A stretch of 61,029 bases of DNA from assembly GCA_000310025.1 (NCBI GenBank), contig FN649746.1:2089378-2150406 (forward strand). Direction: 5' to 3'. The translations under genes and the position numbers were made by a program. Each line of letters begins with the position of its first letter. Position 1 is the stretch's first letter. Shown one piece after another: positions 12,241 through 55,847 of the stretch. The notes beneath the pieces were generated by a model. The model saw only the letters and a list, made by a program, of their open reading frames with translations. It made no database searches and had not been told where the DNA came from. This DNA comes from Ectocarpus siliculosus (taxonomy: Eukaryota > Sar > Phaeophyceae > Ectocarpales > Ectocarpaceae).

Positions 12241-13950
12241 ACTTCGGTGTATGCTCCGCTCTTCGTCGACCCCCCTGCAAGGCGTGCGCCCCCTTCGGTA
12301 GATGGTGGAATGGCTGCTGTTTCTCTCTCGTTGTGGGTGACCAAGTCTGCTTGCGGTTGGGACTGCTGTGTCGTTCGAAGCAATAGGTTTCAAGTTTTAT
12401 CCTGCACCTGTTGCAGGCTGGTGTTGGTGTTGTCGTGTCGCGGACGTAGAAGAATTGAGAGGGACTATATGTGAGGCTTCGTAGGGGTGGTATTAATAGT
12501 CACCCTCATCGGCTGTATCACAGGGGTCAACCTCACCAATGCCTATTATGCTGCATCGACGATAAGGACTTAGTTTTCGCGCGCGGTTTGGGCTAGACTA
12601 TACCATAGGTAGATCATACTCCGAATGTTGTCGAAAATCTCATGGAACGTTCATCATTGCAAGGTATTCCCAGACGTGTCGTTGACGGTGCATGCACGCA
12701 AGATTGTCCCAGTGGTGTGCTGTTTTCGGACTGCCAGCTGTGTGTGGGGGTGGGGTGGGGTTACGACTTTCTTTGCCTGCAAAACGATGATAGATTACAT
12801 AGCGCATGCAATACGGGTTTGAACGCGTCTCACCAGTTGAACGAAATGAGCCCCCCGCCGCCGCTCAGCATGCCCTTTGGGCACGACATCAGTTTGTGGA
12901 ATTTGCATTGGAGACCAGGTGCCGTACAAGTGTAGTTGCTGCCCACTATTAGCCCCTGCCCGGAGGAGCCTATCATCGCAGGGAATTGTTCTCATTACAT
13001 GCGAGCAATCCGATTCCGAAACTCTGTGTTGTACCGTCCGTGGTATTGAAATCTGCAGGATGTGCCCTTCACTCCTTGTTGTGAAGATTTAGGTTTTCGT
13101 CTACAGCAGTACAGCAGCATATAGTCCGGCAGTACATGGAATGCCGACAACACCAGCGAGGAAACAGTGAACAAATGAACGGGATACCACCACACCATTG
13201 TTTCTTGTTTGAAAACGCGCGACCTGTTTGTTGCTAAGTCATCCTGGACTCTTTTGATCTGTGGAAACATGCATGATGGATCTTGTGTTGATTGAAAACA
13301 AAATGTAAAAAGATGCGGCGGGTTGCCGAGCTGGGTGGGCAGTGCGTCTCCATACTGTCTGTGTGCCCCCTCGACCCTCGACTCTCGTCTCTCCTCTCTG
13401 CGAGTCTCTCCTCCGCATGTTTCTCCTCTCGCCTCCATTCTTGGTGTGGCCACACCACCTTCCATTCCGCTGAAGAAACACCCCTCTCCCCAAGAAAGGG
13501 AGAAAACTGGAAAACGGACTGGATGCGCTGCGGAGATACATAAAGATTTTACCATCACAGCGAAACCGGCTCTATTTCTCTGTTTGGAACCGCATCGCTG
13601 CCACACAGCTGGGCTTGGAGGGTATGGCATCGGCGCAGCAGAGAGGACGTACAAGGGCGCGGGGAGCGATGAAGGAAGCAAGCATGTTTTCGGCTCGCGC
13701 CGGCCGAGTCTCCTCCTCCTCTCCCCGAGAACCGTCCCGGATGGGATGGATCACTCTACCACGTACGCTGCAGGAGCTAGTTGCGGACGAGAGACTCAAC
13801 AACAACATCGGATAGCGGTCGTGTTGGCCGACACTGAAGAGCACAACGTGCTCGACCTACAACAGCTTCTGTGGCAGCAGAACCCGCACCAGTGCCGAGG
13901 AGCGGTGGCGATGTTGGTGGTGCTACGTCAGGAGCGTTGCCTATACGTCT
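12241..13950. other. Spacer between the RBM5-like gene and the tandem family
   Basis: No gene is supported. It must hold the 3' UTR of the upstream gene. A doubled CAGCAGTACAGCAG motif is at 13101-13120. Open frames at 13323-13952 and 13615-13815 may include decayed 5' sequence of copy 1, but I cannot align them with copies 2 or 3. Confidence 0.4.
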
Positions 13951-14259
13951 GAACGAGCCGGATCGTCAAAGCTCGTCCCAGAGGGTGTTGCTCCTGCCGA
14001 GGAGGGCGCGAGCGATCAAGCCATGCGTTTGTTGAAGCGCATGAGGCCGGACGAGCTTAGAAAACTCAGCAAGGCCGCCACTGCGCTGTAAAAAACCAAG
14101 CTCGAGGACGGCATAAAGGTGTGTGCACCGTGCCCCTTGATTCCGAGGGGTTGTGTTGCAACAGTATATACTACTGTACGTGTAGTTTGAATATCCGGTC
14201 CAACTTAGGCTGATCGCCAAGTACTCCTCCCCCCCCGCCCCCCGCATATGTACCTACAA

Positions 14260-14470
14260 TAGAGCCTGCGGCCGCCGCTGCTGCTGCTGCCGCTGGCCTC
14301 CAGGCCCCCTTTCTCGGCAAACCCTTCCTCGCCACCGCCGCCGCCTTGGTTGGGGCTGATGTTCAGGGGCCGCTTTCTCACGCCCGGGTGCTCGTCGTAC
14401 TCCCCGGCCCGTTTCGGCGGCCCCGTCCCCTTGGCGTGGCCGCCCTTGGGTGGCGGTCTCTTCGCGGTAT
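14260..14470 (-). other. Coding-like open stretch of unknown origin, opposite strand
   Basis: On the minus strand this GC-rich segment reads through without a stop as a basic, Pro/Gly/Lys-rich peptide (AKRPPPKGGHAKGTGPPKR, then EYDEHPGVRKRPLNISPNQ). It lies inside intron 1 of pseudogene copy 1. No start, splice site or homologue was recognised. It may be an exon of an unseen antisense gene, a captured gene fragment, or chance in GC-rich DNA. Confidence 0.25.
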
Positions 14471-14479
14471 GGGAGGAGG

Positions 14480-14480
<1 letters not shown>

Positions 14481-14528
<48 letters not shown>

Positions 14529-14600
14529 CTGTCTCTCTCTCTCTGTCTCTCTGTCTCTATCTCTGTCTCTATCTCTGTGTGTGTGTGTTTCTCTGTCTCG
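14481..14600 (+). repeat. CTG microsatellite followed by CT/GT-rich microsatellite
   Basis: About 15 consecutive CTG/GCT units are followed by TCTC/TCTG units and a short GT run. The tract lies in intron 1 of pseudogene copy 1 and creates spurious Leu, Ala and Cys runs in the overlapping frames. Confidence 0.95.
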
Positions 14601-16077
14601 CTACCACATCGTTCGGCTGTTTTGAGGCTCGTATGGTACGTACATCAGCAATGCAGCAGTAGCCTGATCAGAACACAAAGAAGTATTATGCGGTAACGCG
14701 GCACAAAGCCTCTTGTGCAACGGTACGGAGGCGCCCTGCATCTCACACGCATCACCACATGCCCTGCTTCGTTGTGCTTCCTGCGGCGCGATCCCGTTCA
14801 CGCGCCCAACTTCAACTACTGTCTGTCCGAGCTGCACCCTTCTTCTGTAACAGACATACAGTAGTCTGCCTGTGCAACCGCAAAAACAATTGCATCCGCG
14901 TAGATCATGGCCCCCATTGCTACAGCATTCCGGTAATGTCCAAGATGCGCGATGTATGTCTCTCTTGCCTCGATGCACGCAAGCTAAGTTCGCTCACAAC
15001 AACACACACAGTTTTGGCTACACCGCCTCCTCGCCATCATCCATCCCCTTGCGAGGTTAAAACCCGTACCGCTGCCCGTATGCCCGCTCGCGCAGGTTGC
15101 AGCTTTCGTAGCGAAGAACGACAACTTCGTCGAACTGGATGCTGACTGCTACATCTGTCTAGAGCCCCTTCTGAACAACATCGGCTCGACCCAGTACGAG
15201 TCTTGAGCTGGAGGTGCCGATGCAGGGTGCCTCCGAAGGCGCACTCGGGGTGCGTGTTTTCCAAGATGTGCCACACCGGTGACGGGAAGGGTGTGTGCGA
15301 CATGTGCGGCTCCCCGATGGTGTTCGAGAAGACTAGGAGGAAGGGCACGCAGGCCACGCTACGGTGAGGTCGCAGTCGCAGGTTGCTCTGGCACAGCAGT
15401 GCTTGCTATTCAAGGACGGGCACGGTCCAATATGGTGCTGAAATGGCAGGATTTTTAAACCGAGAGCAGCGGAGATGCAACTTTGAGGAGACATAGAGGA
15501 CCAATGCGTCGTCTTCCCCATCTCAGAGGACCACACTAAATACCCTGAAGCGAACACATGTGGGATGTCGATGCCCCCCCCCCCCTGCTTTGCCGTTGGT
15601 TGGCTCTTGTGGGAGATGTAGACTGCCAACATGCGCCCAACGATGATTCTGGTGTGTTCGTACTGGTGTTGATGATCTGCTTCGTCAGGCTGTTGAGAGG
15701 TTGAGGATAGACTGTACCCCGACCTACATAGATCAAGCGATCGGTGTAGTTATGACAGGTTGGATGGATGCCCCACACCCCCCTAAAGCCTAAGCAGCCA
15801 AGATCCCAGACAAGATAAATGTACATAGGACATGTTAAGAGGCACCATGGCAGACTGGTAGTCTAGTGGTCATCGTGCCTCTCAACGGGACATGAAAGTA
15901 GGTGCTTCTGCTGCTCACGAGAATCGCGAAATGACTCACCAGAGAGGACAAGTGGACATGGGGGCACTGGTGGACACCTTCTAAATTGTTTTCGAAGCCC
16001 CAGAATGATGTGCACACCTGCAAGAGAGCCGAGTACACGCGAGTCTCGACCGAGGCCGCTTGACCGAAACCTGTGTA

Positions 16078-16170
16078 CTGTTGTTGTTGTTGTCTTCACA
16101 TTAAAAACCGTTCCGTTCTCTCTACCCAGTCCAGACTTTCTTCTGTCCGTACTAGTCTAACACTTGACGG
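16078..16170 (+). repeat. Dispersed repeat, related to 19705-19812
   Basis: A TTG run followed by GTCTTCAC, AACCGTTCCG and TGTCCGTACT occurs here and again at 19705-19812 in intron 1 of copy 2. The two copies look like fragments of one mobile or duplicated unit carried through the tandem array. Confidence 0.6.
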
Positions 16171-17958
16171 GATCGGTTCCTGGGGTCACAGGTTAACTAA
16201 CCCAGAAAAGTATTCGAAAATAAACGCCGCAGTTTTTCTTGTTCTCGCCGGGACACTTGTTGTTTCCCGATCGTGCAGGTTTCACCGCGACGAGAAACGA
16301 GCGGACGCTGACGACTCCAGCAGCGACAGCGACACGGAAAGCGGGGAGGACAGCAGCATCGCTGGACGAGGAGGAAGATGGCAACGATGGTCTTCTAGAA
16401 TTTGAACAGTTATAGGACAAGGATGATACGGGGTGGCTGTAGGTTTGCCACGCCAGCCGTGTCAGCGTTAGCAGGAAGAAAGGAAGATCCCACGACAACG
16501 GCTACGACGACGGCGACAACTGGCTGGGAAGACTGCGAGGGACAACACGACTCAAGAGGTCACGGCTTGGTGATATCTGTACGGACAGGAACCGTCATCT
16601 GCTGTTGCATTGCCTTGTTTCCCCTGGAGTATGACGTGTGTTGGTGTCGAGTACAGCACATGCTACCGTCGCATGGTATCGAGTCGAGGCTTGGGGTAGT
16701 GTTCTGGTTGTCGACAGCGACGAGGCGTTGCGTATAGATTATTGCGAGCAGTGCGTTTCACGCCAATGCGAAGAAAGATCTGCCGTTGACCTCTGGACGG
16801 AGAAGATCATATCGAGCAAACTCGGCTTGGATTGTTCAATCCATCTTGTCGCTTGCGTAGGGCGCAGGAATGAGGGCAGTATAGGCAAGGAGTGAAGGGG
16901 GAGGAGCGTTTTATATTAGCTGCTTGAGATAGACGGACGTGACCAGTCCCAGGGGAGACATCTCTAATGTTGAATGTCTGTACTGATTGAAATATGCGTG
17001 CGCTTGAGAGAGTTTCGCGCGTACCATGACAAGAGCCAGCTCATAGATCGCAGCAAGCTCGTGGATTGCAGCGAACGAGCCCGGTAGAGACCGGAACGGG
17101 GAAAGAGCCAATGGACACAGATACAAATGGTGTGGGTGGGCCTTGACGAAACACGCAGGGTACATCCAGTGGGTGACCACCGGATGAGGCAGGCATTTAC
17201 TGCTGTGACAAACCTAAACAAACGTTGACTCCTCTCGAACCCGCTCAAAGAGGCTAGAATCCATGCACTCTGAAAGAAAGTCGTCTACTGCGTGCATACG
17301 AGTTACTATGCTGAAATAGACCAAGCTATGTATCTCTCTGTATTGGGAGATACCGGGTTCATTGGTCTTGAGTGCAGTATAGTCGGCAGCAGAGGCGCAG
17401 AGGCGCAGAGGCGGCAACTCGTGGTTCGGAACCATTGTTGTTGTTGTTGCTCAAACTTCAAGTGACAATCCTACCGTGTATTCAGCCGCGCGTGTTTGAG
17501 TTTGCAAATTATCGGTTGATAATCCCGAAAACGCTTATTGTTCATTTAGACCCACCTGCTACCGGGGTAGTGAGTAAGGTGGGGAGCATGCATCTTAGGA
17601 AAATAGAAAATAGGTGTGATCGATTTGGATTTCATCAGCGTGGTGCGGACGAATTGGATTTCAGCCGTTGGGCGGGGGGTAAACCGTGAAGTGATACCAC
17701 GTACCCCCCGTTAACGACCCCTGCACACATACTTGCACCACAACGGCAACCGCTTTGATCCGAACAGCAGTCGAGAAACACACACGCCCGACACACCTCC
17801 CGCGAGGTACCGCAGCTCTCTGCAAGGGAGCGGAGAAGAACCCGAGGAGCTGGGTGCGGTTGGTTGAGAAGACGGCTGCTACGTGTTACCCGTCACAGCA
17901 GGAGCACAGCGTTTTTTCTGTTTTTTACTTCATACAAGTAAATAGCATACAAAGTAGC

Positions 17959-20900
17959 ATGTCAACAGCAATAGCAGCAGCGAGGCAGCAAAGGAAGCGG
18001 CCGCCGCCGTCGGCTAGCGAGGAGGCAATCCGCCTCATGAAGCACATGAAGCCAGCCGAGCTGAGAAAGATCAGCAAGGCTGCCATGATTCTGGAGAAGA
18101 GAAAGCTGGAGGACAACAAAAAGGTGGGTAGGTGCGATTTTCGGAATGGGACAAACAGAAGCGGAGATTTTGTATTGTAAGGGTGCTTCTTATCGACCAA
18201 TAAAACACGAAAAAAAAACGAAACCATGTTTTCTTGAACACATATGGAGGCGTTTTTCCCCGAAAGCGTGAAAAGAAGGAGCCGGGTTTTTTTGGGGCTT
18301 GCTACTTAAACGAATTCGTGTTTTTGACAGAAGCATCGGACAAGCGCACCGCGGGCGCTGTAACATCACTGAGAACGCTAGATAGAAAGACCTGCCAGAC
18401 TCACGTCCAGGTCTGTTGTGGAGATGGACAAGCGGCAGAAGCGGCGTTCAGTCCGTTCTTGGCCCAAAACTAGGCATTGCGTGGTGCTCTCGTCTTCAAC
18501 TGCTGCTGTTGGTGCTGTTTTTTTTTTTCAATCACACATAACAAACACGGAAACAGTAGAACGAGTACAGCAGCAGCACCAAGACCTCCAACGCGCTGAT
18601 TCCTTCGGTTCGGCTGTCTATATGATACCATCTCCCGGCGCCGTGCTGCTTCGTGGGTATTGGGTGCTTGGATGCTGCTCAATAAAGTGTGTGAGAGACG
18701 TGTGCCACCTCACCAAAATGCCGTTGGAAAAAATGCGGCGAGATGATCTGCTTTTGGTCGGACGCATCAACATCAATCCACGGCACCACGCAGCAGTAGA
18801 GCAACAGGGCCTCCGACACGCAAATTCTTTCGGATTGGCCATCTATATGATGCTGGCCGTCAGCGCGGCTGCCGCCCTATGATTGTTGAGCTCGTCTACC
18901 TTTGGGCAGGTGGTGGTCAAAGATGGGAGTCGCAATCGTGAAAAATGAGCTGGCAAACTGAAGAAATCGCAAGCAACACCCAGGTGGCGACACTCTGCCC
19001 TGCGTCTGTTGTTGCTGAAAACTGAAAACAGCAGGCCAGGTGGACGGGATCTTTCTAAGTGTGTTGTCCTCTGTGTCGGGTGCTGCTTATTGCGCTTTCA
19101 CCGCTGCTCTATGGTGAGCATTACCATGTCAACCTGTTGTGTGTCGAGCAAAACGTGTATTCAGGGAAGGAAACGAACTCTTCGCGATGACATCACGATT
19201 AGAACAAGGGAAAAATAATCGGATCTTCTTTTCACCGTTCCGTGAAAAAAGCGTTTTTTTTGTGTTGCGTTAACAATAACCCTAAGAGCAATCTGCTGTG
19301 CTCTCTGTGTCCGGTATGCGTACCACCACGTGTCTTCGTGTTGTGTTGCAAATGACCAACCTCCGCCTGTGGACTGCCCCTTGCCTGGGGCTGGAACAGC
19401 CTATGGTCGTAGAATACCCGTAGACCACTCTGCAAGAGCGGATACACACCAACCGGGGCCTCGTCAAAGGGATTGAGCTGTGGGCGACCTCGCTGTAAGC
19501 TCGGTACATTGTAATATTTAGAGTTCACACTACGACGCCAACGGCGGCGGCATGTATCTACAGCAGTGTCTTCTCCAAGGCTTCGTCGTAGTGGACGCCG
19601 GAACCAAGCAGCATCGGAAGTCATTGTGGGAAACCCTTGGAAGAGTTAAGGGGCTGTGCCCGGCGTGGCTTCGAGCAAGAGCACTAGGAGGAGAATCGTG
19701 TTCGTGAAGAAATGTTGTTGTTGTTGTTGTTGTTATTGTTGTCTTCACGTTAACAACCGTTCCGGTGTCCGCTCAGTACCTTCTAATGTCCGTACTGCTC
19801 CAACTCACGCGGACGCCTTCCGTGGTCACAAGCAAACTGCACCCACAAAAGGGGGGGTACACCTTTCTAAAATACAATGGACACCAGAAAATTTCCTCTG
19901 AGGTGCGATGTATGTAGTTATACACAACCACAGCAGCGAGGAAACACAAGCAAGCATCGACCAACTCGCGTGTCATAAATTGTGATGGAGCAGGGGGGGA
20001 GGGGAGGAAAGCCCGAGGCTTGCAAGGGCTGTTACACGTCTATCACCGGGGAGGCTCAAAACGGCATTGGTCAACATAGAGGTTTGCAAGGTCGGGAGAT
20101 CCTGCGTAAACGCAGGGGGGGGCTATGGGCGGGGGGAGGTTGCGAGTCATGAGGCAGCAGCAGCTACGCGAAACATTGACCGTGTTTAGGAAAAAGGCGA
20201 TCAGGGTGGATAGTCTGTACTGCGTGTTCTGTACTGCGTGTTCTGCAGCGGGTGCGTCGAGGGTGGGCAACAAGGCGTGGGGCTGGCGATCGAAGAATCG
20301 ATACGCATGTCGCCAAAGAACACCCTTTGAATGATGAGCACCAAACCGTCAGCCGTTTTGGTAGGGTCCATACGCACCAAAATGGAAACTAGCGACCATG
20401 ACATGGAACGAGGATTCTCTCACAACCTCAACAGCTCGGTGCAAACGGATCCCAACAATCTCGTACGTATGGATGCAAGGAGAACCCAATCCCAACGGCG
20501 TCATCGGGGACCGTGCTGGCGGGCGACTTGAAGCGAACGGACTACGTGCTGACACGCTCACGCGCGTTGGCCACGAGCGCGATACGCGGCCTTGCGCCTG
20601 CTAACGATATCGGCTGGGAAAAGCGGACTAAGACGTGACATGGCTTGGAAATTATTCGGCCCCAACCGCAATACTAGAAAGAACAAGAGGTCATGGCGAC
20701 GGAAGTGGTAGTTCGACGACGTTTCCGCGAAGATGACAAGCTCCATGTGGGCCTGGTGTTTTCGACGAAGAGACGGGGACGAGCCCGAGACAACGGTGGA
20801 ACGGGCCGAGGAGGACGGAATGGGGAACGAAATACGCCGACGATGCTGGGATCGTGTCCAGATCGCCAGCAGGGGTCCCTAGAATGATGACGGTTATGTC

Positions 20901-23900
20901 GTGGAATTTTGTGGTGTTTTTGACTGAAGTGCATCGACAGGGTTGCAGAAGAAGACAAAGACCCTCCTGATTCAGGCACTGGAAAGGTATAGAGGCCTAC
21001 GGAGGCGCTAACATCAGCTCTGCCGGCGCTAGGGATCACGGAAGCCGAACTGAAAGTGTGGAACCCGGTATTTTGAGTTCGTAACCCGGACGGCCTTGTC
21101 AGCGAAGACGCCGATCGTAGGCACAAGGTGGACCGCCGCGCCAGAATCGCTTGGGGATGCTTCGCAAAGTTCTCCTTGGAACTCATCGATCCGCCAAGCG
21201 CGCCAATGAGGCTCAACCTTCGGATGCTGCAGGTAGAGACGCAGAAGGGGGTGCTGTACGCGTGAGAAGACGGGGCACAAATTCCCCCCCGAGTCACGGG
21301 CATCGCCGCGTTCACGGCATTCAACGCCACATACCGCAAGCTCAATATATCGGAGGCAGAGTTGGGAGGGACTTCTGGGCAGCCATAGCTTCTGTTTGCG
21401 GGGGGCAATGCTGGACAAGGGAGACAAGCGACCACCAACGCGGCTGTTGTTTGGGAAACCCCAAAACGGGGCTACCCGCCCCACCCCGCCGGCCATCGCG
21501 TGCAGTAACAGGTAGACAGCCTGGTGGACGAATTCCAAAGCCTGTCGGAGCTCTACACAATTCTACGCCGCCAAACGGCGGACAAATGAAGCCTATCTGC
21601 TCGCTTGAAAACGGCAGGCGAGGTGCCGGGAGGACGGAGTACCGTGCTACAACAGGTGTTTGTTGGAGGTGGGCCGTTTTCTGGGCCCCACGAATCCAAG
21701 GCCAAGAGATAAATCGAGCAGATAAAGTGCTGGCGAATCTGGAGAACGGAATCTCAGAGAGGGATTTAGAGCATTTAGTTTCTACACAGAGGAGCTATTT
21801 GGTGTAAACGGCGGTCGGCATGATACACGAAGGGGGTTGGTACGTGTGTGATCTGATGATTTAGGAGCCACGGAGTCCCCTGTGCATTGGGCTCTCATGG
21901 CTCACCTCTGCTCGGGCTCCGTGCATGTCCACATGGCTGATGCCCTGAAACCAGGACAAGTGCGTCTCATTATCCGCACCCGGATCGGTTCTTAGGGTGT
22001 TAAACGTCTGGTCACCCACCGAACAATTGAACAGGACCATCTCCATTTTATCTCCCTTTTCACCGTCGTCGATTACTCTCGCTCGCGATTCGGGGCCCCG
22101 CGCCCACTGGGGGCGCGGGGGGCATTCTAGTCTCGCAGTTTGGTCCCTAATTTGGTCCTCTGTTTTCATTATTCTCCGCGTCGGGCTTGTTTTTTGTCAC
22201 TTTATGGATGGGTTTGGCCTGGTCCCTTGTCTTGAGTTTGACGTCATTTGCGTTTTGTTTCTCTCCCGTATCTGTCGAGCTTTTTGTCTAGGTGCAGCAG
22301 TAGCGTCGTGTGGCCCGCCCGTGTTGCCTGACCGCCCTCACACCCGCAAACCTGGTTGCTTGAGGGGTGTTTGCCTGGTTCGTGCCAAACCCAACGTAGA
22401 GCTCACTGTTACAGGGTGGGCTCGTGGAGATATTTGCTGTCCAGGGCGGGACGGGCTCGTCTCGTGCATGATTTCCATGATTCAATTTGTTTGCGGCTGT
22501 GTTCATTTTGTTGCGCCGGTGTACGAAGTTGAAGCCCGTTGTAACTATCCCGTGGGGTACGGTTGCCTGGTCCGCTAACACAGAATCCGGCGATGTCTCG
22601 TATTCCTTGCAACACCTGCAATAGTACAGTGTTCTTCTGCGCAATCGGTGGGACACACTCTGGGCCTGTTATTCCAGAGTTTTAGGTCAGCATGAGGCAA
22701 CGGAAATTCGATTTTTTCCTTGGCACAGCAGTGAGGAAGAGGGGCTCTCGGGCAGAGGCCAGAAAGTTGTTTTCATGTGGAGAGAGCAATAGTACCGACT
22801 CTCAAGTGCTGGAAAATTACTAAATAACGAACACCCGGAACACCTTTTTCTGTTTGAGGAGCACGGCATGATGACCCAGGTAGACTCAGCAGGGTACATG
22901 GGCTCGGGGGGTATCGCGATGGCGCTCCCCCTCAATTTTTCGTTTTGCTGTGTCTACAGCCAACAAAGGCTCGGTTGGAAAATTTGCGCCTGGTATGGGC
23001 TTGGACGGAGGTGTCTTGCGCGGGCGCGGTACAGCATGAGTTGTTGCTGAGCTCCGGCGGTTCTGGAAATGCTTCAGAGTTTGTTGAAGGTCTTCGTTGA
23101 TGCCTTCCCAGGCTATGAGGAGCGGTGCTCAAGTATTGTTAAATCTGCCAGTGCAGATCGCCTATTTTAGAGTTCCTCTCTCGAATTTCTCTCTTGTCCG
23201 TTTCTTGGTCCCGAAGGAAGTTTGACCGTGCTGCGTGAATAGACGTAGAACAGCTAAAGCTACGAGCTTGCGGGCGGTGAAGCTTGCAGATGATGTTGTA
23301 AGTGTTCGGCCGATACCCTTCTACGCGGCAAATGTTTGAATGATACCCTGCCTATGTGGACGCCGGACACAGCAGCAGCCTAGGATGATCGATTCGCACT
23401 TGGATGATGTCAGCGGATGAATCCGCGAAGGTCAGGATGCACGGCTGTTCGAGTTTGCTTTTATCGAGACTATCTGCTAAACAGCATGGGCGTCGTAACC
23501 ACGCTTTTCACTCTGCGCCCACTCTGCTCGCGCAGGTTGCAGCTTTCGTGGCGAAGAATGACAACTTTGTCGAGCTGGTGGGCGATTGCTACATCTGTTT
23601 AGAGCCCCTTCTGAACAACATCGGCACAACCAAATTCGGAGTGGTCAGCTGGAGATGCCGCTGCACCGTACCTCAGAAGGCGCACTCGGCGTGCGTGTTC
23701 TCCAAAATTTGCCACGTGGCCAACTCGCAGGGTACATGTGACATGTGCGACTCCCCAATGATGTTCGAGAAGACCAGACGGAAGGGTACCCAGGCCACAA
23801 TACGGTGAGGTTGCCGTTCAGCAATGGCCGTTTCTGACATGAGGCTGGTTTCGGCCATGCTGTAAGGATGGGGTGGATTTCCAATGTCGTAGGTGCGGAC

Positions 23901-24741
23901 ATGGCGGGACGCCTTATCCCCGCAGTCGAGACATATCGAAAGTGCCTTCCGTGATGTTTTATTACATGATAGACGCTTCCAATGACACTCCATAGAACGG
24001 AAGTTGGAGATCTTGATTTGTATGAGTTGTGCGAATAAGGCCCTTTGTAATTACGTGGCCAATGGCTTTTCTAGCGTGTGCCTTCAGTGTGAACGAAGGC
24101 TGGGGAGTTGGCTTGGGGGCGTCCTTTCTGTCGACGGTGTCATGTAGTCTGTTGTCGGACGGACAGTGTTCCCTGGTGCCGGGGCAAAAGTGCCCCCACG
24201 AGGAAACATCCCGTCCTACCAGATCGCGCCACATTGCACAGTTCCATTTCTTTTCTTCAAGTGATTCCATCAGCAGCGACAAGCTATTCTACGCCTCAAC
24301 AAGACGATCCAACAATGCCACAGCACCGCCAGTAACCGACGCAACTCTAACGTCGGTATCCAATGTATTTGAGCTACGTTAGGCCTACTGCTGTGGGTCT
24401 CGAAGGCGAGGAGATCACGCCGAGTGAAGAGTTGTTGTATGCGGCGTCGAAACTCCTCGAGCGACACCATCATGTTTTCGTTACTCCTGCGCATGACCCC
24501 TTAGGCTAAAGCTGGCTGGCTACATATTCTGCTCGATTAATAATTGCACAGATTTCACCGGGATGAGGAGCGGGCAGATGACGCCGACCCAAGCAGTGAC
24601 AGCGAAGAGGGGGAAAGCAGCGGCAGTGAGAGCCTTTCCGACGTTAGCAACGAGGACAGCAACAGCAGTCTCAGTGGCAGCGATCTCAGCAACAGCGAAA
24701 GCTCGAGCGGATCTGACAGTAATGAAGAGGATGGCGACTAG
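17959..24741 (+). CDS. Copy 2 of the tandem family: RING-CH-like protein, 3 exons, 207 aa
   Basis: Exons 17959..18123, 23536..23804 and 24552..24741 join in phases 0 and 2 to 208 codons. Exon A gives a basic helical region (EEAIRLMKHMKPAELRKISK, then AAMILEKRKLEDNKK). Exon B gives a C4HC3 finger: C73-x2-C76-x19-C96-x-C98-x6-H105-x2-C108-x14-C123-x2-C126. This resembles RING-CH (RINGv) spacing, where x7 before His is usual. Exon C adds R145-FHRDEERADDADPSS and a Ser/Asp/Glu tail to residue 207. RING-CH proteins are normally E3 ubiquitin ligases, often membrane-bound. No membrane segment is present here, so a soluble ligase or a non-catalytic zinc fold is possible. The start is the first ATG in frame with the motif. 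Intron 1 is 5.4 kb and carries a retroelement relic. The gene model is confident; the function is open. Confidence 0.7.
18540..18880 (+). repeat. Imperfect local duplication in intron 1 of copy 2
   Basis: Two related blocks (about 18560-18650 and 18780-18870) share CAGCAG, a GATTCCTTCGG/AATTCTTTCGG core and CTATATGAT. They lie in one open frame, 18418-18882. No protein domain is recognised, so I treat this as a duplicated non-coding segment. Confidence 0.4.
21067..21264 (+). mobile_element. Relic of a non-LTR retrotransposon reverse transcriptase (3' part)
   Basis: After an in-frame TGA near 21073, a 62-codon open stretch reads VRNPDGLVSEDADRRHKVDR, then RARIAWGCFAKFS, and ends with MRLNLRMLQVETQKGVLYA and TGA at 21262. 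This matches the thumb-side pattern of LINE reverse transcriptases (LGSLVSEDG, a run of basic residues, RIAWACF, then a Leu/Lys-rich helix ending LLYG). No catalytic FADD-like motif or endonuclease is visible nearby. It lies in intron 1 of copy 2 and is a dead fragment. Confidence 0.5.
22091..22121. repeat. Short GC-rich hairpin
   Basis: CCCCGCGCCC and GGGGCGCGGGG pair around a four-base loop. It is the tightest small hairpin in the intron and its role is unknown. It may be a fragment of an adjacent mobile element. Confidence 0.5.
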
Positions 24742-26399
24742 TTAGCGCGATTACATTGACGCGGGAAACATTTTGTTTCGGATGTGTCTGCAAGGGGCAG
24801 GACGCCATTGCGCCGAAGTGCAGGCGTCATTTGGTATTGAGGATAGTCGAAGGTGCAACTATGATGTTGCCGAGATGGGGAAGCGCAGTCGACACTTCCA
24901 GCATGTAAATCTCTGCCGATACAATGGGGAAATTCCTGTGTAATGGTGCACCCTACAAACTTTGATTTGGGTCATTCATTTCATATGCTTGTAGACGGAA
25001 AGGCACAAGGATGAAGCAATTGGAGAGTCGGTCAAAGAGAATGGAGGTTACCAAAGATTGGTTCCCTGAAGTAGCGACCCTTTACCCTCTTTGCTCCCCT
25101 CCGGTGTACCATGCATGACAAGGAGTGATGAACGGGGTCGAGACCAGGACAGTTGAGTCCGAACACCGAGTATGCGCCCAAGATGGTGGGCGAGACCGAA
25201 CAAAGAGGGTCCAGAGAGGAGGGCGTGAGACACCCGCGGTTTTCTTTTTTTGTGATACTCGGTAAACGGTGGTGGGGGGAACGTGACAGCGCCTAACGAT
25301 GAGGGCGAGTTGCGGGAGGATAACTTTCGGCGATGCACAGGCGATGTGGTGTTCATTAGCTTCGCCGTGCAGCGCTTTGACTTACCGGTGGTGAGGAGTA
25401 CGTTCAGTTCAGAAACACGCTGTTTTGTGGTCGATGTCGACGTCGACAAGCAAGCGTTGTTGCTCGAGGTGGAGTGCTCGCAGGAGGAGTTGTTGTTTTC
25501 GCGTTTTTTCTGCGTCGTTTTGGCAGTGCTCTTGGTGGGACGGTTTCCAACATGTATGTACACCGGGCCAGTGTTCCACAGACAGCAACATCAGTTCTCG
25601 CGTTGTTGTCGTGTTGTTTCTTGCGACCGTGTAAAAACCAATTGTTTGCCCCCTTGATGGTGTGGTGGTGGTGTATATCCGCATTTAATTTGAAATGCTC
25701 ATGTAGATGGTTGGTTCTGGAAAACCGAGATAATACAATGGCAGCGATGATGATGACCAGATTCCTTTCTTCTTTCGCCCGCAGGGAGCAGCACCAAGAA
25801 ATATCCAAGGGCGCCAAATCCAAAAGAATTGGGCAGTATGGGAGCGCTGTGGACACCGGCGAAACAAAGAAAGGCTTTTAGTAACTGCTTTTCGCTTGTG
25901 AAGTCTACAACGGTTTCTATTGGCTAGATACCTCTCGTACCGCTGTACAGACAAAGCTGGACCTCGTTGATTTGTCTTCGGCCAACGGACGTGTACTTGG
26001 TGTGGCTGTGTGCTTTGTCAAGACACAAAGACACCAAGCATATCCGTGTACATGACACGATGACCGTGATGAAAGAACATGTATGATTCGATCCGCATCG
26101 ATGCCGCCGCCCGGTGGGAGGGAGGCGGGGGTGCTATTTCTGAATGATGCTGCGGTGCCCCCCGGTCCGCCACGGTGGTTAGCCACATACAAGCCAACAC
26201 CCACGTGACTCGTGTAGCGAGCACACGTCGTTCCAGGAAAGACATAGCCCACTTCAAGAGGATTAATTGGCACCAAAGAAGCTGGGGTGGTCACCGTTGC
26301 GGAAAAGGTGCTCAACAGACTTCGGACGACCTTTTCTCCTCTTGGTTGCCGTTGGGGTAATTCCGTAATTCCTCCGCGAGCTGCGTACAGCAGTAGTTC
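24742..26399. other. Spacer between copies 2 and 3
   Basis: No gene is supported on either strand. A TACAGCAGTA motif sits at 26386-26395, immediately before the start codon of copy 3. Confidence 0.45.
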
Positions 26400-29300
26400 A
26401 TGAACCGAGCCGCCGCACCCGGCGTTCCCAGCTCCCACAACAGCATTACAAGTATGTCATCCACGCGGGGAGGGCTACGGGGAAGGGTGCGGAGGCAGGA
26501 GTCGACCGATGCGGAGCCTGATGTTGACCGTCGCACTTCATCCTCCTCCGTGATATCAGTGTCGTCGCGCGTGGCCGCGATCTCCAATAGGAGGGTGGGG
26601 CCTGGGTTCGTGCTGGGAGCACCGGGTCCACGTGACGCAACTCGTCCCCGTGTGCAAACGCGTTCAGGGGGTGGGCGGGGTGGTAATACCAGCGCCGATG
26701 CTAGCGTCCTGTCAGGTTCTGAAAGGGCGGCTTCTGAAAGGGCGGCTTCTGAAAGGGCGGTCGCGATCATGCGACGGCGGGAGGCGAATCGGTTGCCGCC
26801 GGCGCCGGCTTTTGCCCCACCCCAGCCGGTAGAGGGTCCCAGGGAGCAAGCCTTGAACCTTCTGAAGCGTATGAGGCCGGATGAGCTCATGGCGATAGGC
26901 GAGGCCGCCACTGCGTTGGCGAAGAGGAAGATGGATGACAGGAAAAAGGTGTGTGTGTTTGCAGCTGCTGGATGTTTCGCCTATTCTTTTAGCATGTCTG
27001 TCGAATCGCGTCCAAGACACGCATTTACGGAGTTCCGGATTCCCTGTGTGTATGGTCTGCAGTCTACAGCAAGTAATCCGTACGTCCTTAGCATTGACCG
27101 CGCTACATAACCGGTTTACCCAATGAAATATACGCCAGTGTTAGCGGGTGGAATCAGGGCGCTGGGAGGGATCCCAACATCGAGAAATGCGCAACACGAA
27201 CGCCAAAGCAAACCTCTCAAATACTAGAAATACTGGAAGTATTTATGACCTACGCACCACAGCTCGACACGTATTCTTTCCCGAACCTAGGCACTGCTGA
27301 TGCAGAGAGCGGAGGACAGCAAAATGGTCATGTCAAGCCCAGCCGAAGCCAGGATATCACTGTATGCCGCATCTCCCAATTTGATGGTCGTAGACTCCAA
27401 AGATCCAGCAGTCATATTGTCAGCAGCCAGACAAACTCCGCAATATGGGTCCTTATCATCTATTCTGACGCCAGTCTACACACAGCTCGGTGTGTGTGTG
27501 TTTCTGAAGTGCGTCCGCCGGGTACACACCAGGAGGAAGGAAGAAGGAAGGCCACGAAGCTTGCTATTTTTTCTATATTTTCTTGCCGCACTTTCCTCCG
27601 TACGAAGAAGACACGAGAGACAGCAGTCCGCCCTCTTCTTCCTACCTCCCAACGACTCTTCCCGTCGCAATCCTGCCCCACATGTACTGCTCTGAATGAC
27701 CGGAAACACGTGGTGTGTCGCCGCCGGAGTGATAGGTCGCAACCTCCCAAAAGAGGAGGTCGGCCACCATTGGTTGTAGGAGCAGCCGCGTTTACCCGCT
27801 GACAAATGAGAATAGTCAAGTTCGCCAGTCTCACAAGACAACAACGACAGCGAACGAGAGACATGCCTGTGATCCGCGCCTCGGGTGAGAGATCAACCAC
27901 GGTTGTTTCAGCAACCCGAGTGGTGCCAGGCCGTTTAGTCCGCGGCCAGGAATGTCGACGGGAGTTACAACCTCCGGTTTGGCAGTTCAGAGCATCAGGA
28001 TCTGTGGGTTGTGGAAGTCAACATCAACAAGCGCTACTCTTGTCGTGTGGCCCGCCTGTGGTACATACAGCGTAAACATTGTTATGCAGTCAAGTACGCT
28101 CCGAAGTGCTTTTGTCTGACTACATATCTGTGCACCAGCACCTCACCCAAAGATGCTGCTGCACCTGTTGCTTAGTCTTCATGAGGTCGTTGTTGTTTGA
28201 CACGTGTGCTACTCGTGCTTCTATTCTCGTTCTTGTCTGCACGTGAACTGGATTCCTAGTATACAGAGTAGACGTGGATACACACAACAAAGAGGGGGAA
28301 AGACTGCTTCACCCTTCTCGCGTTGATGCATTGGAGGCAGGGACGACAGGAGGATATGTTGAGAATTATTCCTGTGTTACCCCGGCTGGTTCGTCAAAAA
28401 ACCACTGGAAGATTTCGCTGGCGCCCAAAACAGATGGGACTCCTGCAAGCACAAGAGTAAACGAGCATGTTCGGTTAAAACCCCGGTCAGCACGATATCA
28501 CGAGTGTTTGATTGAGATGGTTTCTTGCGGTCATCTTTGGGCAACTTGCTCTCGCGCCCACGTGGTTTTTCTGGCTCATCTGAGGCTTGTCTATGCACCA
28601 GCAGCACGAATCTCATTCTCGCCGTAGGTGCCACTTAACCGACACCACCGGGTGAGCGTGTTCTTCTGGCGATGAACTGGTCGCGGATTTGATCGGTCTT
28701 TCTTTCCGTCTGAGAGATCAGGCACACGTTGCCGAAGTGTTCTTCGGGCCATATAGGAACCCTCGGCTTTAGCCTTGAATTAACCAAGATTCAAGAACAA
28801 CGCATTCAACGCGCTACGTCCTGCTTGCTGCCATCCGATCCCCGCTTGCGTTGAAAGTGAGAGTGTGCCTTCGTTGGCATCTCCGAGATTCACCTGAATG
28901 GTCACTACAGTCGGTGAACCTTTCCCGGCAAACATCTTCGGGCGGTACAACATTGTTCATTAGATATTTACTGGTCGCATGTGCGTCACTACCCGTCGGA
29001 AGACCCTGGTTGCCACTCTGCGTTTTGTATTCATGAACCCCGCCCTCGTGGCTTCATCTTCCCTCCGTGAAAATGTACACAGATCGCGGCGTTCGCTGAA
29101 AAGCACGACAATTTCGTCGAGTTGGTGGAGGACTGTTATATCTGCCTCGAGCCGCTCCTGAACAACATCGGCACGACCAAGTTCGGAGTCGTGAGCTGGA
29201 AGTGTCGCTGCACCGTGCCTCAGAAGGCGCATTCGCGATGCGTCTTCTCCAAGATCTGCCACGCTACCAACGGGCAGGGAAAGTGCGACATGTGCAACTC

Positions 29301-30651
29301 CCCCATGGAGTTCGAGAAGACTACGCGGAAGGGCACCCACGCCATGATAAGGTTAGGGAGATTCGCAAAGTGGCACTGTCGCCGACACAACAGCGCTGTG
29401 TATGCTACTGATACAGTGCCGTCTGGTAGCTGACGAGGGGACACGCTTGTCGCAAGAGGAGATGGTGATGGGGTTCCAGTAGCTGGCATGGCATTCGTCG
29501 AAATTTACAACGAGGAGGAACGAGGGCGCCAGCTTTGCTGTCGAAGGCACGCCTCCAACAAAACTTGGGACCACCAGGAAAAACACGCGTCCCCCCCCCC
29601 CCCGATTTGTTAGATGTGCATGATTCCCCCCATGCTTGATCAATGGAGAAGTCTTTGCCTCAAGACGTCGTGTGTGTCAGTAGTTCTGGGTGGCGTCGGT
29701 GGCTACCGATCGTGGTAACCTTTAGCGCGTGCGTGTCTGGCTGTTACTGCTGTCCCCCAAAAGAGCGTCTACCGTAAGAAACTGAGAGATGGCACCCCCC
29801 CCCCCCGCCCCTACACCGATGTTCAAATCTCGACTGGCTCCGCAACCAAGATTGTGCCAACACCAACAATGGTGGTTTTGGAAACTTCTCATCGAGGGGT
29901 TGGTCGGGCTCTTAACGCACCCCCTTGGTTGTGGCAAAGCAGAAGGAACGATTGGCCATCGGTGATCGGTCCCGTGGGAACAATGCCCCGTCCTCTCGAG
30001 GACGCGTGGTCAATGGTCTAACCGCTAAGGCCTGCGAAACATAAGAGTACGCCCCGTTGGTTGTGGAGCAGCCGAGGTCTGCACGTCGGTCCAGGGGGAG
30101 TACCATATCTCCGCCTCTTTCGGTATTCCAACCTCGGCAATCGCTTCTACCAAGGGCCGTACTCTTGCAAGTCGGCGGCGAAACCACGGTAATTTTTTCC
30201 CACGGATGAGATACACTCCTGCGCATTGGCTGGCTGTTGCGCTGGCCGCCTCTGCACAAGGGCAAGAACGGCGGGGCGTGAACCTTGGTGCGAAGCTATG
30301 GTCCCCACGAAAAGAATTCCGCTCGGTCGCCGCCGTTGGTGTACGCTACGTTTGTACAGGTTTCACCGCGACGAGACGGACAAGGACGCCGCCATCAGCA
30401 ACGAAGAGGAGGAAGAGAGGGAGGAGGAGGAGGAGGAGGATAGGGAGAGGGAGGGCGATCAAGAGGAGGAGGAGGAGGAGGAGGAGAGGGACCTGGAGGG
30501 AGAGCAGGAGCAAGAGGAGGAGGAGGAGGAGGAGGAGGAGGGAGGGGAAGTACCCCAAGTGTTTGTGAGTCTTGAAGACCAAGAGTTTGTTGACGAACGC
30601 GAATCACCCGTCGCAGACGATTTCGACGGAACGGGGTGGTGGGCGTCGTGA
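26400..30651 (+). CDS. Copy 3 of the tandem family: RING-CH-like protein, 3 exons, 369 aa
   Basis: Exons 26400..26948, 29083..29351 and 30360..30651 join in the same phases as copy 2 (0 and 2) to 370 codons. Exon A is much longer (183 residues). A Ser/Arg-rich low-complexity region with three in-frame 15-bp repeats (ASERA units, 26710-26760) precedes the basic helix QALNLLKRMRPDELMAIGE. Exon B is 269 nt, exactly as in copy 2, with ligands C201, C204, C224, C226, H233, C236, C251 and C254. Exon C opens FHRDETDKDA and becomes almost pure Glu encoded by a GAG/GGA microsatellite (30400-30545). It ends in a non-repetitive stretch, FVSLEDQEFVDERESP, before TGA or TAG at 30649. The finger differs little from copy 2 while both ends diverge strongly. 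The open frame through the repeats argues for a functional gene. Confidence 0.7.
26708..26762 (+). repeat. In-frame 15-bp tandem repeat, about 3 units
   Basis: The unit GGCTTCTGAAAGGGC is repeated inside exon A of copy 3 and encodes Ala-Ser-Glu-Arg-Ala. Its length is a multiple of three, so copy-number changes keep the frame. Confidence 0.85.
29935..30020 (+). repeat. Dispersed repeat, second copy of 518-606
   Basis: This block shares with 518-606 the ordered pieces GGCAAAGCAG/GCAAAGCAG, GGAACGAT, CGGTCC, GTGGGAACAA and CCGTCCT, and the CGAGGA and GGTC segments. A shorter match (GGTCAATGGTCTAACG) is at 35709-35726. It is likely a fragment of an interspersed element. Confidence 0.6.
30400..30545 (+). 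repeat. GAG/GGA microsatellite inside an exon
   Basis: A purine-only tract is interrupted by a few AGG, CAG and GAC triplets. In frame it encodes the poly-Glu tail of copy 3. Confidence 0.95.
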
Positions 30652-31006
30652 AGCCTTAAAAGTGTCTTCCTGGGTGCTTGGCGCTCGCTGGTAATCGGTC
30701 AGGCAGACCAGACATCGTCAGGGGATGGCCTTTGCCACGGTGTCTCGCGTGTGTTGGTACTCGTACGGGTTGTGGCGTTCGTTGTGTTTCCGTGAGGATA
30801 AGCGGTGCATGGAGACCGGTGTTCTTGGTTGGGGGGGCGTGCGGGTACAGGGTCCTGCCGGGATCATCCACCGATGTTTGTCAGGCGATACTGACGAGAG
30901 GGGGAATCGAAGGTGCCGTTGGTTTCGGGCGGTGGAAATATGCTCGGGGGAGGGGGGGACGCCGATTCAGCGCGTGCGCGGGGGGTCGGGGGGGGGGGGG
31001 GGGTTC

Positions 31007-36300: not shown

Positions 36301-39300
36301 CTCCGACTCCGACTCCGGCCCCTCTTCCCGCCGCCACTGCTGCTGCGGGAAGAACGGTCCTTGTTTTCGGAGAACGGCCTTCGCGCCAACTCGTCCTCGG
36401 AAACGCGCGTCGCGGTCGACTTGTCCACGAGAACCTTCTCGCCTGTGTCTTCCATCCTGAACAAAAAACGAAATACCAGAGAGAGAGAAAGAGAGGGAGA
36501 GAGAGAGCGTGTACCAAGATACGAGGGGGCCGTCAGAGAAAGAGGAAGGGGGGGGTCGGCCGGGTCTTCCACCCAGAACAAAAACATAGAACAGAGAGAG
36601 AGAGAGAGAGAGAGCGCCAAGTTACGTGGGGGCCCGCAGAGCAAGTTGGAGGGGTGGGTTGTCGTGATAGGTGTCTTGAGCTACACTGGACGGTGGGCGG
36701 CCACACAGCAGTGGCAACAGGTTCGTTCGTGTTGGTGTCCTCGAATTATCAAGTATCGGGTGTCCTAGAGTTACGGCGGTACCACTGAGGCTCTAATGAT
36801 GAAGAGCAACCTGGCGGCGCGGCAGAGTAGGGGATGCGTGGTCGTCTGGTTCTGCAATGCGCCCGTTTTTGACACACGCTTCCACTCGGGCCACGGCGCG
36901 CCTTCTTGAGAATCATGGTTATTTCTGCTGAAAATGAAACGTCAAATCTTTGCTTTGCACTACCACTACAAACAGGGCCGGTTCGACACAAACGGTGCCC
37001 ACTTCTCCCCCTGTACAGAAGAGAAGGTGACCATACCCACGAACCAGGCGAATATTGACAAAAAAGGTTTGCGTACAAGAGCAGAACCAATTGAACATTA
37101 TGGAGCATTCAAACACTAAAACATGGAGCGAGCAATGCTACCGTGTGGTTTTGTAGATACGTGCGTACCTCGCCATCCACAAAAGTGAGCAAGCAACCGG
37201 AACGGTAGGTTCAATCCACGACATGATTCTGGAACACGAAACATGCTAGTCCCATGATGCACATGACAGCGTACAAACATACCAACCGATTGGTTGCATG
37301 AGCAGGTACCATCAAATGCACAGCGATGGTTAGTCGCGAAATGCGGTCGGTGCATGTGTTTCTACGCTCGTTGACATTGTTGGGGCTTTCATACTTCATC
37401 GCTCGAGGCAAGGCTACTTGTCTAACACCCGCGTTGCGTAGCCACCAGATTAGCATACCTCACGGATATCTTGTTCAGCCCGGGCACCCCCTGCGTCTTG
37501 AGCACCATCGCTCGAGGCCGGCGCCTGCCCCTCTCTCCCCCTCCTTCCGACAACTCCACTACGTCCATGACGGCTAGCTGCGCAGCCGCACTTGGCCGTG
37601 ATGCCCGCAAGCGCTCCTCCTGAACCTTTTTCTCCCAAATCTGATTAGGTGTGTAGCGCAGGGAGACACGATGATGGACGGGGTCACCGCCGATTCGCAG
37701 AGACAGAGAGTACCGGGGGGGGGGGCGAACGATCCTCAACGCTGCTTGTCTGCCCCCCGAGAGTGGCAGAGGGGGAAAATAGCATTTTTGGGGGTGGGAC
37801 TAACTCCCAGGAGAACGTTGTCCTCGGCACTCATGCTTGAACAACGGATAGAAAAGCGCGAAACCCCATTGGATGTCGTATGTTCGTGACCATCGTAAGT
37901 ACGCACGACGTCACACCAACAATGCGGTTGACACTAACGTAGCCCTGTTTTAAACGGTACTGGTTGAGGGTCAACCGATCCAAAGGGTTATGGTGTGTGC
38001 GTCCCTCCAACCTCGATGCAATCAAGAAATGACGTCACACCTTGAGGCGTTCCGCGTCCGATGACCTCGGCTTCTCTCCAGGCTTCTTTGTCCGCGGCCG
38101 TTTCATCTGTGGATTAGATTTGCGGAGGCGCGCAGCAGATGGAAAGAAAAGTAAGCAATGACGCCGTGCAACTAACACAAACGCGGAAAGGTAATTAATA
38201 ATTAAGGTGACCGGCTTGGTTGTATCGCGGAACCGGCGGTGAGACAAGGGTCAGGAGGGGGGGGGGTCACGCGCGGCGAAGACGTCGGGGCAACTGTAGT
38301 AGGTGTTCTGACAGGCTACCAGCGTTATGCTCTGAAAGGGATTGTAGAGTTTTAGCCAAAGCAGCAACGAATCCAGAACCAGACGAACAAGCCCACAACT
38401 TCGTCACCACAAGCGTGGCAAACACGCACGTCAGTACCCACGAAGGTGTACTACGGCCAACGCTGGTGTACCAGGTGTGGTATCGACGAAGACAGCTCCG
38501 GTAAACCAAACAACGATCAGGTATTACTCGTGTGCAAATGCAAGACTGAGGGAACATTGTGCCAACTAGTAGACAGTCACATAGAAGAGCCCGGGCAACA
38601 TGCGGCATGCATTGCGATGCCGGCTCTCGCAAGACGTCAACCCGTCGGCCACTGGAAATCCTGAAGGAATCGGTGGCTCGAAAACAACGATGAGACATAC
38701 CGCAGACACCCCCCGAGCCCCCCATCCCCCAATCGCCACTAAAACTAGAGTTCTCATGTCCGTGCCAAACCCGTTCGTTGCTCTTCCCTCTTCCGGCAGG
38801 GGAGACGCGGCAAAAACACTGAGCCCACCCTCCCGCGACGCTCTTGCACATCTTGATGCACACACGGCATTCGTACAAACCACAACAGCTGCACCACAGC
38901 AATTCAACACGACGAACACGACGTTCCTTCACCGCCATACCAGCAGCGACGACGACGCCGAAACAAGACTCGCCCATGGCAAACAACACGTCGGCGATCC
39001 GTCTCTTGCCTCGCCTCTCCCCTCACCTCCTCTGGGGGCTTCGGCTGCGCCCCCAACCCAAGCCTGTGATGCCTAGGTTCAATATCCTTGGACAGATCCG
39101 GCCCGCCTCCGCCGACTCCGCCGCCGCCGCCGTCTCCTTCTGGCCCCTTCCACCCCATCCCCCGGAGCAGCGCCGCGCCGAACTCTGCGACCGGAACGTC
39201 GACGTAGGCCTTGCTGCGAGCGCTGAAGTCCTCCGCGCGATGCCCTAGGTCGTGCCTAAACTTGGCGTCCTCCCCGTCCACCTCCATCAGCCCGGGGATC

Positions 39301-39911
39301 ATGTTCTGCTCCAGCAGGCCAGTGTTCCTTTTGCTGCCGGCGGCGTCGGGTGTTGTCTTCGCCGTTGCAGCGCCGTTGCTGCTGTCGCCTTCGCCAGCGG
39401 CAGGGTTCTTGCCGATCATGCCGATTACTCTGTCGGAGTCGAGGCCTAGCCCAAAGGCGTCGGCGCTAGACCCGTCGCCGCGGACGGATTCCTTGGCGAT
39501 GGCTTCAGCCGCTAGCTGATCGAGAGATTTCTCGCCTGCCGGCTCTTCTGCCGTGGGTGGGCGTTCGGCTGCCGTTGCTGCGGGCGGAGGAACAGACCCG
39601 GTAGCAGCAGCAGCGGCGTTGCTGCCGTTAGCCCAGGGGTTGGAAGCGAGGGCGATAACGCGGGGGCCTCTGTCCACGACGACCTCTTTCGTGACGACCT
39701 TGCCCCCGCCGATTCCTGTCACGTAGTCCCGCTTGCCTCCCCTCCCCCCTGCGTCCTCGTCATCGTGGGCTACGCCTATCGCCGAAGTGGAAGACTTGCT
39801 GCCGCCGCTGGTGGCGCGATCTGGTCCCTTGGCCGACGTAGCAGAGGAGGAGGATTGCTTAGGCTTGCCCAAGGACATGGAGAAGCCCTTCTTGGGCTTA
39901 GAGCTCGCCAT
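33332..39911 (-). CDS. GPKOW/MOS2/Spp2-like spliceosomal G-patch and KOW protein, 7 exons, about 670 aa
   Basis: Exons in transcript order: 39911..39027, 38106..38041, 37640..37459, 36456..36271, 35585..35122, 34295..34162, 33427..33332. All introns are GT-AG, every phase matches, and the total is 671 codons. Residues 235-288 hold the Spp2/GPKOW G-patch, YVDVPVAEFGAALLRGMGW then HHRLGLGA. It is followed by a basic linker (MKRPRTKKPGEK). Residues about 340-400 match the second half of KOW1 (RAMVLKTQG, KISVRMEDTGEKVLV). An RS/RD-rich region leads to WLRANIRVRVI, then KOW2 ETVLPARGGKVIVVRGAEKG and ETALVQ. The C-terminus is TLSLDDVAEFTGMLDEDMED. Family members bind the helicase Prp2/DHX16 through the G-patch and work in the nuclear spliceosome. 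A glycine-rich insert replaces the usual GEGIG after MGWK, and the first half of KOW1 is not recognisable. Exon 3 placement is the least certain. Confidence 0.88.
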
Positions 39912-40355
39912 GATGGTGTCGTGATTTAGGGTGGCAATCCACACACAACTTCTCGTCCTCGCCCGTACAGCAGTATCCCCCTGCTCAGGATTGCAGGCTG
40001 AGAGTGCTGGGTGCCGGGCAGACCCCCCCCAAAAAGGAATGAAAGAGTAGAGCTGCGTGGAATCCCACTGGTGGAAGCCACACAGTAGACACCAACTACG
40101 TTTCACTCTGAAAATAGAGGCAGGATGGCAGAGACGGTTCCACGCAGGCGCCTGCTGCGCGGGCCTGTTGTGCTGCTGGTCAGTGGTCGGCTCTCGTATT
40201 CGTCTCTGGAGCTCCGCAGGGTGGAAAGGGGTATCTTGGTACCCGCGGAGCCCCCAAATCTCCGGAGAAGCTTCGCGGCAGATCGTGGGGTTGCTCCGCA
40301 TTTGACGGCTTCCCGGCGTGCTGGTTGCACTCGCACTGCACACATCGCCTTCATT
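39912..40355. promoter_or_regulatory. Candidate shared (bidirectional) promoter region
   Basis: This interval separates the start codon of the minus-strand GPKOW-like gene from the first ATG of a possible plus-strand gene. It carries a TACAGCAGTA motif at 39965-39974. If the plus-strand gene starts instead at the in-frame ATG at 40125, the interval shrinks to 213 bp. This is inferred from layout only. Confidence 0.25.
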
Positions 40356-55815: not shown

Positions 55816-55847
55816 GGAAAGCACCCGCTACCCAACACGATATATCG

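What the first reader, a model, noticed from the sequence alone, without database searches (positions are those of the whole stretch)
13951..30651. Undescribed tandem gene family: basic helix + RING-CH-like finger + acidic RFHRDE tail
Three head-to-tail copies share the same three-exon plan, the same intron phases (0 and 2) and an almost invariant 269-nt central exon. That exon encodes C-x2-C-x19-C-x-C-x6-H-x2-C-x14-C-x2-C. The spacing is close to RING-CH, but the central spacer is one residue short and no membrane helices follow. The upstream helix (LLKRMRPDEL) and the downstream RFHRDE motif are fixed parts of the family. I recognise no described family with this combination. It may be a lineage-specific E3 ligase or a zinc-binding adaptor, expanding in place.
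Basis: partly seen in the sequence, partly recalled or inferred. Interest (0 to 1): 0.85.

Follow-up and report, generated by a model that had tools for sequence, protein, structure and literature searches.

The report
Small tandem zinc-finger gene family
Three neighbouring copies of a gene (two apparently intact, one broken) encode a small protein with a basic helix, a zinc finger resembling a type often found in ubiquitin ligases, and an acidic tail; it matches no family in the libraries searched, and what it does has not been tested.

Summary
The core observation holds: three head-to-tail copies share a three-exon plan, GT/AG introns in phases 0 and 2, RFHRDE at the start of exon C, and a central exon with C-x2-C-x19-C-x-C-x6-H-x2-C-x14-C-x2-C, exact in copies 2 and 3. 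Corrections: copy 1 is broken (TAA in exon A, 1-nt frameshift in its 268-nt exon B). Exon B is conserved, not nearly invariant: copies 2 and 3 are 82% identical in protein, dN 0.107, dS 1.52. Two intact copies, one pseudogene and one frameshifted relic (contig C66) do not look like active expansion. A conserved extra Cys-His pair was missed. No usable match was found in Pfam, NCBIfam, PHROGs, PDB, viral or prokaryotic collections; RINGv membership is not supported; AlphaFold was uninformative. Best reading: a soluble, divergent RING-CH-like finger between a basic helix and an acidic tail, acting as an E3 or as an adaptor. Shown: ligand pattern and purifying selection. Inferred: splicing, zinc binding, fold, activity. 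Lineage restriction could not be tested. Modest interest.

The parts
14008..14118 (+). copy 1, exon A helix part (ASDQAMRLLKRMRPDEL...), with in-frame TAA at 14089-14091; true start of the exon not determined
15096..15363 (+). copy 1, exon B, 268 nt; 1-nt deletion near 15197 shifts the frame, TGA at 15204-15206: pseudogene
16279..16405 (+). copy 1, exon C remnant, RFHRDEKRADADDSSSDSD..., to the first stop
17959..18123 (+). copy 2, exon A (55 codons, ATG at 17959), basic helix; donor AAG|GTGGGT
23536..23804 (+). copy 2, exon B, 269 nt, C4HC3 finger plus extra Cys-His pair
24552..24741 (+). copy 2, exon C, RFHRDE plus Ser/Asp/Glu-rich tail and stop; spliced protein 207 aa
26400..26948 (+). copy 3, exon A from the most upstream ATG; alternative starts at 26454 and 26769
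29083..29351 (+). copy 3, exon B, 269 nt, C4HC3 finger plus extra Cys-His pair
30360..30651 (+). copy 3, exon C, RFHRDE plus Glu-rich tail and stop; spliced protein up to 369 aa

Best explanation
A small gene family whose protein has three modules: a basic helix (exon A), one compact zinc-binding finger of RING-CH-like C4HC3 order (exon B), and an acidic, probably disordered tail that starts with RFHRDE (exon C). Most likely the finger is a divergent cross-brace (RING-type) domain that binds two zinc ions and works as a protein-docking surface in the cytosol or nucleus: either as a soluble E3 that recruits an E2, or as an adaptor that has lost E2 binding. The helix and the tail would supply partner binding. 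Shown: exon structure by sequence, ligand pattern, purifying selection on exon B, charge layout, no hydrophobic stretch long enough for a membrane helix. Inferred: splicing, helix, zinc binding, cross-brace fold, location, ubiquitin activity. My split: cross-brace zinc domain about 0.7; active E3 about 0.35.
For: Exon B differences between copies 2 and 3 fall 9/11/38 by codon position (chi-square against equal thirds p 1.3e-6), with dN 0.107 and dS 1.52. None of the 16 amino-acid changes touches the 10 Cys/His (chance of that alone is 0.12, so weak). The ligand order CxxC...CxC...HxxC...CxxC is that of the yeast Doa10 RING-CH sequence, and the ends look alike by eye (CDMCDSPMMFEKT here, CDICHYPIQFKT in Doa10). 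Charges: exon A +9 and +15, exon B +3 and +2, exon C -18 and -42 in copies 2 and 3. The C66 relic reads in one frame from the finger into an exon-C-like stretch (0 of 2000 shuffles reach the score against copy 1, but p 0.06 and 0.2 against copies 2 and 3, and no clear support at DNA level), a hint that B and C form one coding unit.
Against: No RING or RINGv profile hit; the only Pfam hit of exon B alone is zf-RING_Vps41 for copy 2 at E 0.31, far under its cut-off; copy 3 has none. A profile of 11 host RING fingers scores Doa10 at E 3.8e-4 but copies 3 and 2 only at 0.048 and 0.21, filters off, database of 3. With Cys and His held fixed, similarity to Doa10 is marginal (p 0.058 and 0.034), and host RING fingers reach similar p (best 0.018 and 0.034); hhalign gives about 10% probability over 15-16 columns to both. 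The Trp of Doa10's CLLEW is Lys here. The extra Cys-His allows other zinc assignments.
Confidence: 0.45

Rival explanations
1. Zinc-stabilised nuclear or chromatin/RNA-associated adaptor without E3 activity: the basic helix and finger bind nucleic acid or a partner, the acidic tail binds basic proteins.
For: Strong charge split between basic exon A and acidic exon C; 8 CK2-type [ST]xx[DE] sites in copy 2's tail, though only 3 in copy 3's; Lys at the RING-CH Trp position; no RING profile hit.
Against: No match to a nucleic-acid-binding domain at a usable score in Pfam or PDB (the best PDB hit is a BCL6 zinc-finger chain at E 4.6); acidic tails are common and unspecific.
Confidence: 0.3
2. A true but divergent member of the RING-CH (RINGv) E3 family that lost its membrane helices.
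For: Ligand order and the CDxCxxPxxF end match Doa10.
Against: The RINGv search of the whole genome does not list exon B among 14 matches up to E 10 (19 candidates scored); spacer 6, not 7; no CLxxW; no membrane helix.
Confidence: 0.12
3. A different zinc fold that uses the extra Cys-His pair (10 conserved ligands).
For: C59-H60 kept in copies 1-3.
Against: Three related copies show little; the pair is lost in the C66 relic, though that copy is frameshifted.
Confidence: 0.1
4. No functional genes: all copies are decaying relics.
For: Two of the four copies found are broken.
Against: Copies 2 and 3 keep open frames and splice sites, and low dN/dS at dS above 1.
Confidence: 0.03

Closest known systems
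RING-CH (RINGv, PF12906), e.g. yeast Doa10 (PDB 2m6m, 8pd0)
   Same: C4HC3 ligand order, C-x-C pair, H-x2-C, final CDxCxxPxxF stretch
   Different: spacer 6 instead of 7, no CLxxW, no membrane helices, extra Cys-His pair, no profile match
RING-H2 (zf-RING_2, PF13639)
   Same: CxxC ends and a CxICLE-like start, as in some of the host's own RING fingers
   Different: C-x-C-x6-H-x2-C instead of C-x-H-x2-H-x2-C; no CPxC; exon B is not among 44 host matches at E<=0.001 (120 candidates scored)
zf-RING_Vps41 (PF23555)
   Same: the only Pfam hit of exon B alone: copy 2, E 0.31, 11.1 bits
   Different: far under the 30.3-bit cut-off, absent for copy 3, and exon B is not among 18 genome matches up to E 10 (27 candidates scored)
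PHD finger
   Same: C4HC3 order (recalled)
   Different: C-x-C third pair, where PHD has 2-4 residues (recalled); no Pfam PHD match
EsV-1-7 domain family
   Same: a brown-algal expanded family with a repeated motif (one passage of PMC7457493 seen); cysteine-rich (recalled)
   Different: no repeated motif noticed here; the sequences were not aligned

Membership tests
RING-CH / RINGv | match to the RINGv profile | tested here: not met
   no RINGv hit at E<=10 for exon B (HMMER filters on); not among 14 listed genome matches (19 candidates scored)
RING-CH / RINGv | C4HC3 ligand order with C-x-C | tested here: met
   copies 2 and 3
RING-CH / RINGv | seven residues between the C-x-C pair and His (as in Doa10; general rule recalled) | tested here: not met
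   six in copies 1-3, five in the C66 relic
RING-CH / RINGv | Trp four residues after the H-x2-C cysteine (seen in Doa10; a review calls a Trp of this class catalytic, passages of PMC4897099; that it is this Trp is my inference) | tested here: not met
   HSxCVFSKICH: Lys there in copies 2 and 3
MARCH-type membrane E3 | transmembrane helices after the finger | tested here: not met
   largest 19-residue Kyte-Doolittle mean 1.03 and 0.87, at the start of the finger itself
RING superfamily (cross-brace) | two zinc ions in a cross-brace fold | tested here: inconclusive
RING E3 ligase | E2-dependent ubiquitin transfer | not testable with these tools
   needs a bench assay
Tandem gene family | homologous copies with shared intron positions | tested here: met

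The most novel reading that the evidence does not exclude
A protein family not described so far, whose finger is a zinc fold of its own: ten conserved Cys/His with an extra Cys-His in the last loop, set between a basic helix and an RFHRDE-led acidic tail, acting as a soluble ubiquitin-ligase module restricted to this lineage.
Probability: 0.15. Interest if true: 0.5.

Novelty: new variant of a known kind. Interest (0 to 1): 0.3.

Why it matters
It adds a small, conserved family with no profile match to a genome in which standard RING profiles do find other genes (44 zf-RING_2 matches at E<=0.001). If the finger is a cross-brace that profiles miss, automated annotation undercounts such proteins here. 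Otherwise the matter is ordinary: to my knowledge (recalled) many lineages carry a few divergent RING-like genes.

Tried and rejected
Transposon or repeat origin of exon B: rejected, the genome searches list only four places with clear similarity, although such counts are lower bounds. A fifth place, C15:5390959 (E 0.38 with the C66 query), was read; it shows RWRCYCSYPDAHLACFL, part of the same order, and I did not count it. Viral or prokaryotic origin: four scans of viral contigs and one of genome contigs found no relative; they need a near-exact stretch of about 8 residues and would miss distant ones. Fold: uninformative (the viral structure library was not searched). Profile comparison with host RING fingers and Doa10: no significant match. 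C66 as a processed retrocopy: left open; intron 2 seems absent, but no exon A adjoins it and an AG stands at the exon-B start. dN/dS by YN00 failed, and the 2-versus-3 dS of the first 99 bases could not be computed. RNA families in 13000-31000: 0 matches. tRNAs in the window: 0. Paper searches: none of the listed titles is on this family: 3 papers; 3; 5; 10 of 22 listed; 8 of 65 listed; searches returned 0 papers. Only passages of two papers were seen.

Full report
What is there. Three copies lie head to tail on the + strand. Models: copy 2 exons 17959-18123, 23536-23804, 24552-24741 (207 aa); copy 3 exons 26400-26948, 29083-29351, 30360-30651 (up to 369 aa); copy 1 exon A ending at 14118, exon B 15096-15363, exon C from 16279. 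All six introns start GT and end AG, the first in phase 0 and the second in phase 2; lengths are 977/915, 5412/747 and 2134/1008 nt. The arginine codon of RFHRDE is split by intron 2 in each copy.

Copy 1 is broken. Exon A has an in-frame TAA (14089-14091), and exon B lacks one base, which brings TGA at 15204-15206. Its pieces still look constrained (second part: dN 0.15, dS 0.79 against copy 2; 0.18, 0.54 against copy 3), so the loss is probably recent. An assembly error is not excluded, though two lesions make it unlikely.

Is it more than chance? Exon B matches between copies with E from 3e-58 to 1e-75. At E<=1e-4 the introns share only about ten bases at exon edges and one short dispersed repeat. 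Copies 2 and 3 differ in exon B at 9, 11 and 38 first, second and third codon positions; dN 0.107, dS 1.52 by NG86 (a dS this high is rough). Exon A is less constrained: dN 0.36, dS 1.27. A relaxed C4HC3 pattern is found in six frames only in exon B of copies 2 and 3, and in 0 of 100 shuffled windows.

How large is the family? Searches of the window's genome with exon B of copies 2 and 3 list the three tandem copies and one further place, C66:197814-197993 (48% and 44% identity). Exon A queries up to E 10 find only the three tandem copies. The exon C query of copy 2, up to E 1, finds only itself (acidic sequence is hard to search). These counts are lower bounds. The C66 copy is, read by eye, frameshifted before the CxC pair and without the first Cys; it also lacks the extra Cys-His. 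Its frame runs on into NFHHAAGAADADSSGG and a stop, which resembles exon C of copy 1 (0 of 2000 shuffles reach the score), less so copies 2 (p 0.06) and 3 (p 0.2), and not clearly at DNA level (p 0.31, 0.05, 0.45 for copies 1, 2, 3). Intron 2 thus seems absent there.

The finger. Compared with yeast Doa10's RING-CH, the order and the end (CDxCxxPxxF) agree, but the spacer before His is one short, and Lys stands where Doa10 has the Trp of CLLEW. Passages of a MARCH review (PMC4897099) speak of a catalytic Trp in this class and of Trp residues beside the E2-binding surface; that this is the Trp in question is my inference. E2 binding is therefore doubtful.

Known families. Pfam at E<=10: copy 2 exon B hits only zf-RING_Vps41 at E 0.31, copy 3 none. 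At E<=1 the full protein of copy 2 has no hit and that of copy 3 four, all under their cut-offs and mostly on the acidic tail (best E 0.028). Seven pieces gave only two weak hits, to bacterial flagellar families, for the exon A-B piece of copy 2. NCBIfam (copies 2, 3), PHROGs and PDB (copy 2): none; a PDB search with alignment A1 gave one chain at E 4.6. In the same genome the RINGv profile lists 14 matches up to E 10 (5 over the cut-off) and zf-RING_2 44 at E<=0.001, and this exon is in neither list. A profile of 11 host RING fingers scores Doa10 at E 3.8e-4 but copies 3 and 2 at 0.048 and 0.21 (database of 3). With Cys/His fixed, exon B resembles Doa10 at p 0.058 and 0.034, and the 11 host fingers at p 0.018 to 0.88; over 24 comparisons nothing stands out.

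Structure. AlphaFold on exon B with five rows gave mean pLDDT 57.7, and on a 70-residue core of copy 3 alone 40.7. This neither supports nor refutes a cross-brace.

Verdict. A real, small tandem family with purifying selection on a RING-CH-like finger. Membership in RING-CH is not supported; working like a RING-type docking domain is the most likely reading.

Noticed in passing
G000:C66:197814-198056 (L005 2315-2557): Frameshifted relic of the family in which the finger reads straight into an exon-C-like stretch, so intron 2 seems absent.
   Followed up: partly
window 38907-40484, - strand: 526-aa open frame with a G-patch_2 domain (E 6e-13).
   Followed up: no
window 46140-47063 and 50615-51358, - strand: Open frames matching parts of the lipase-like C-terminal domain Lip_C (E 1.2e-12 and 6.3e-7), profile positions 108-345 and 5-111: perhaps exons of one gene.
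   Followed up: no
window 54920-55821: Tandem array with a 72-bp unit and a higher-order 215-bp unit, about 4 copies at 93% match.
   Followed up: no
window 16079-16210 and 19728-19851: A repeat shared by copy 1 intron 2 and copy 2 intron 1 (71%).
   Followed up: no
G000:C15:5390959-5391057, - strand (L009): Weak match (E 0.38) to the C66 finger: RWRCYCSYPDAHLACFL with the same CxC-x5-H-x2-C order as the relic.
   Followed up: partly
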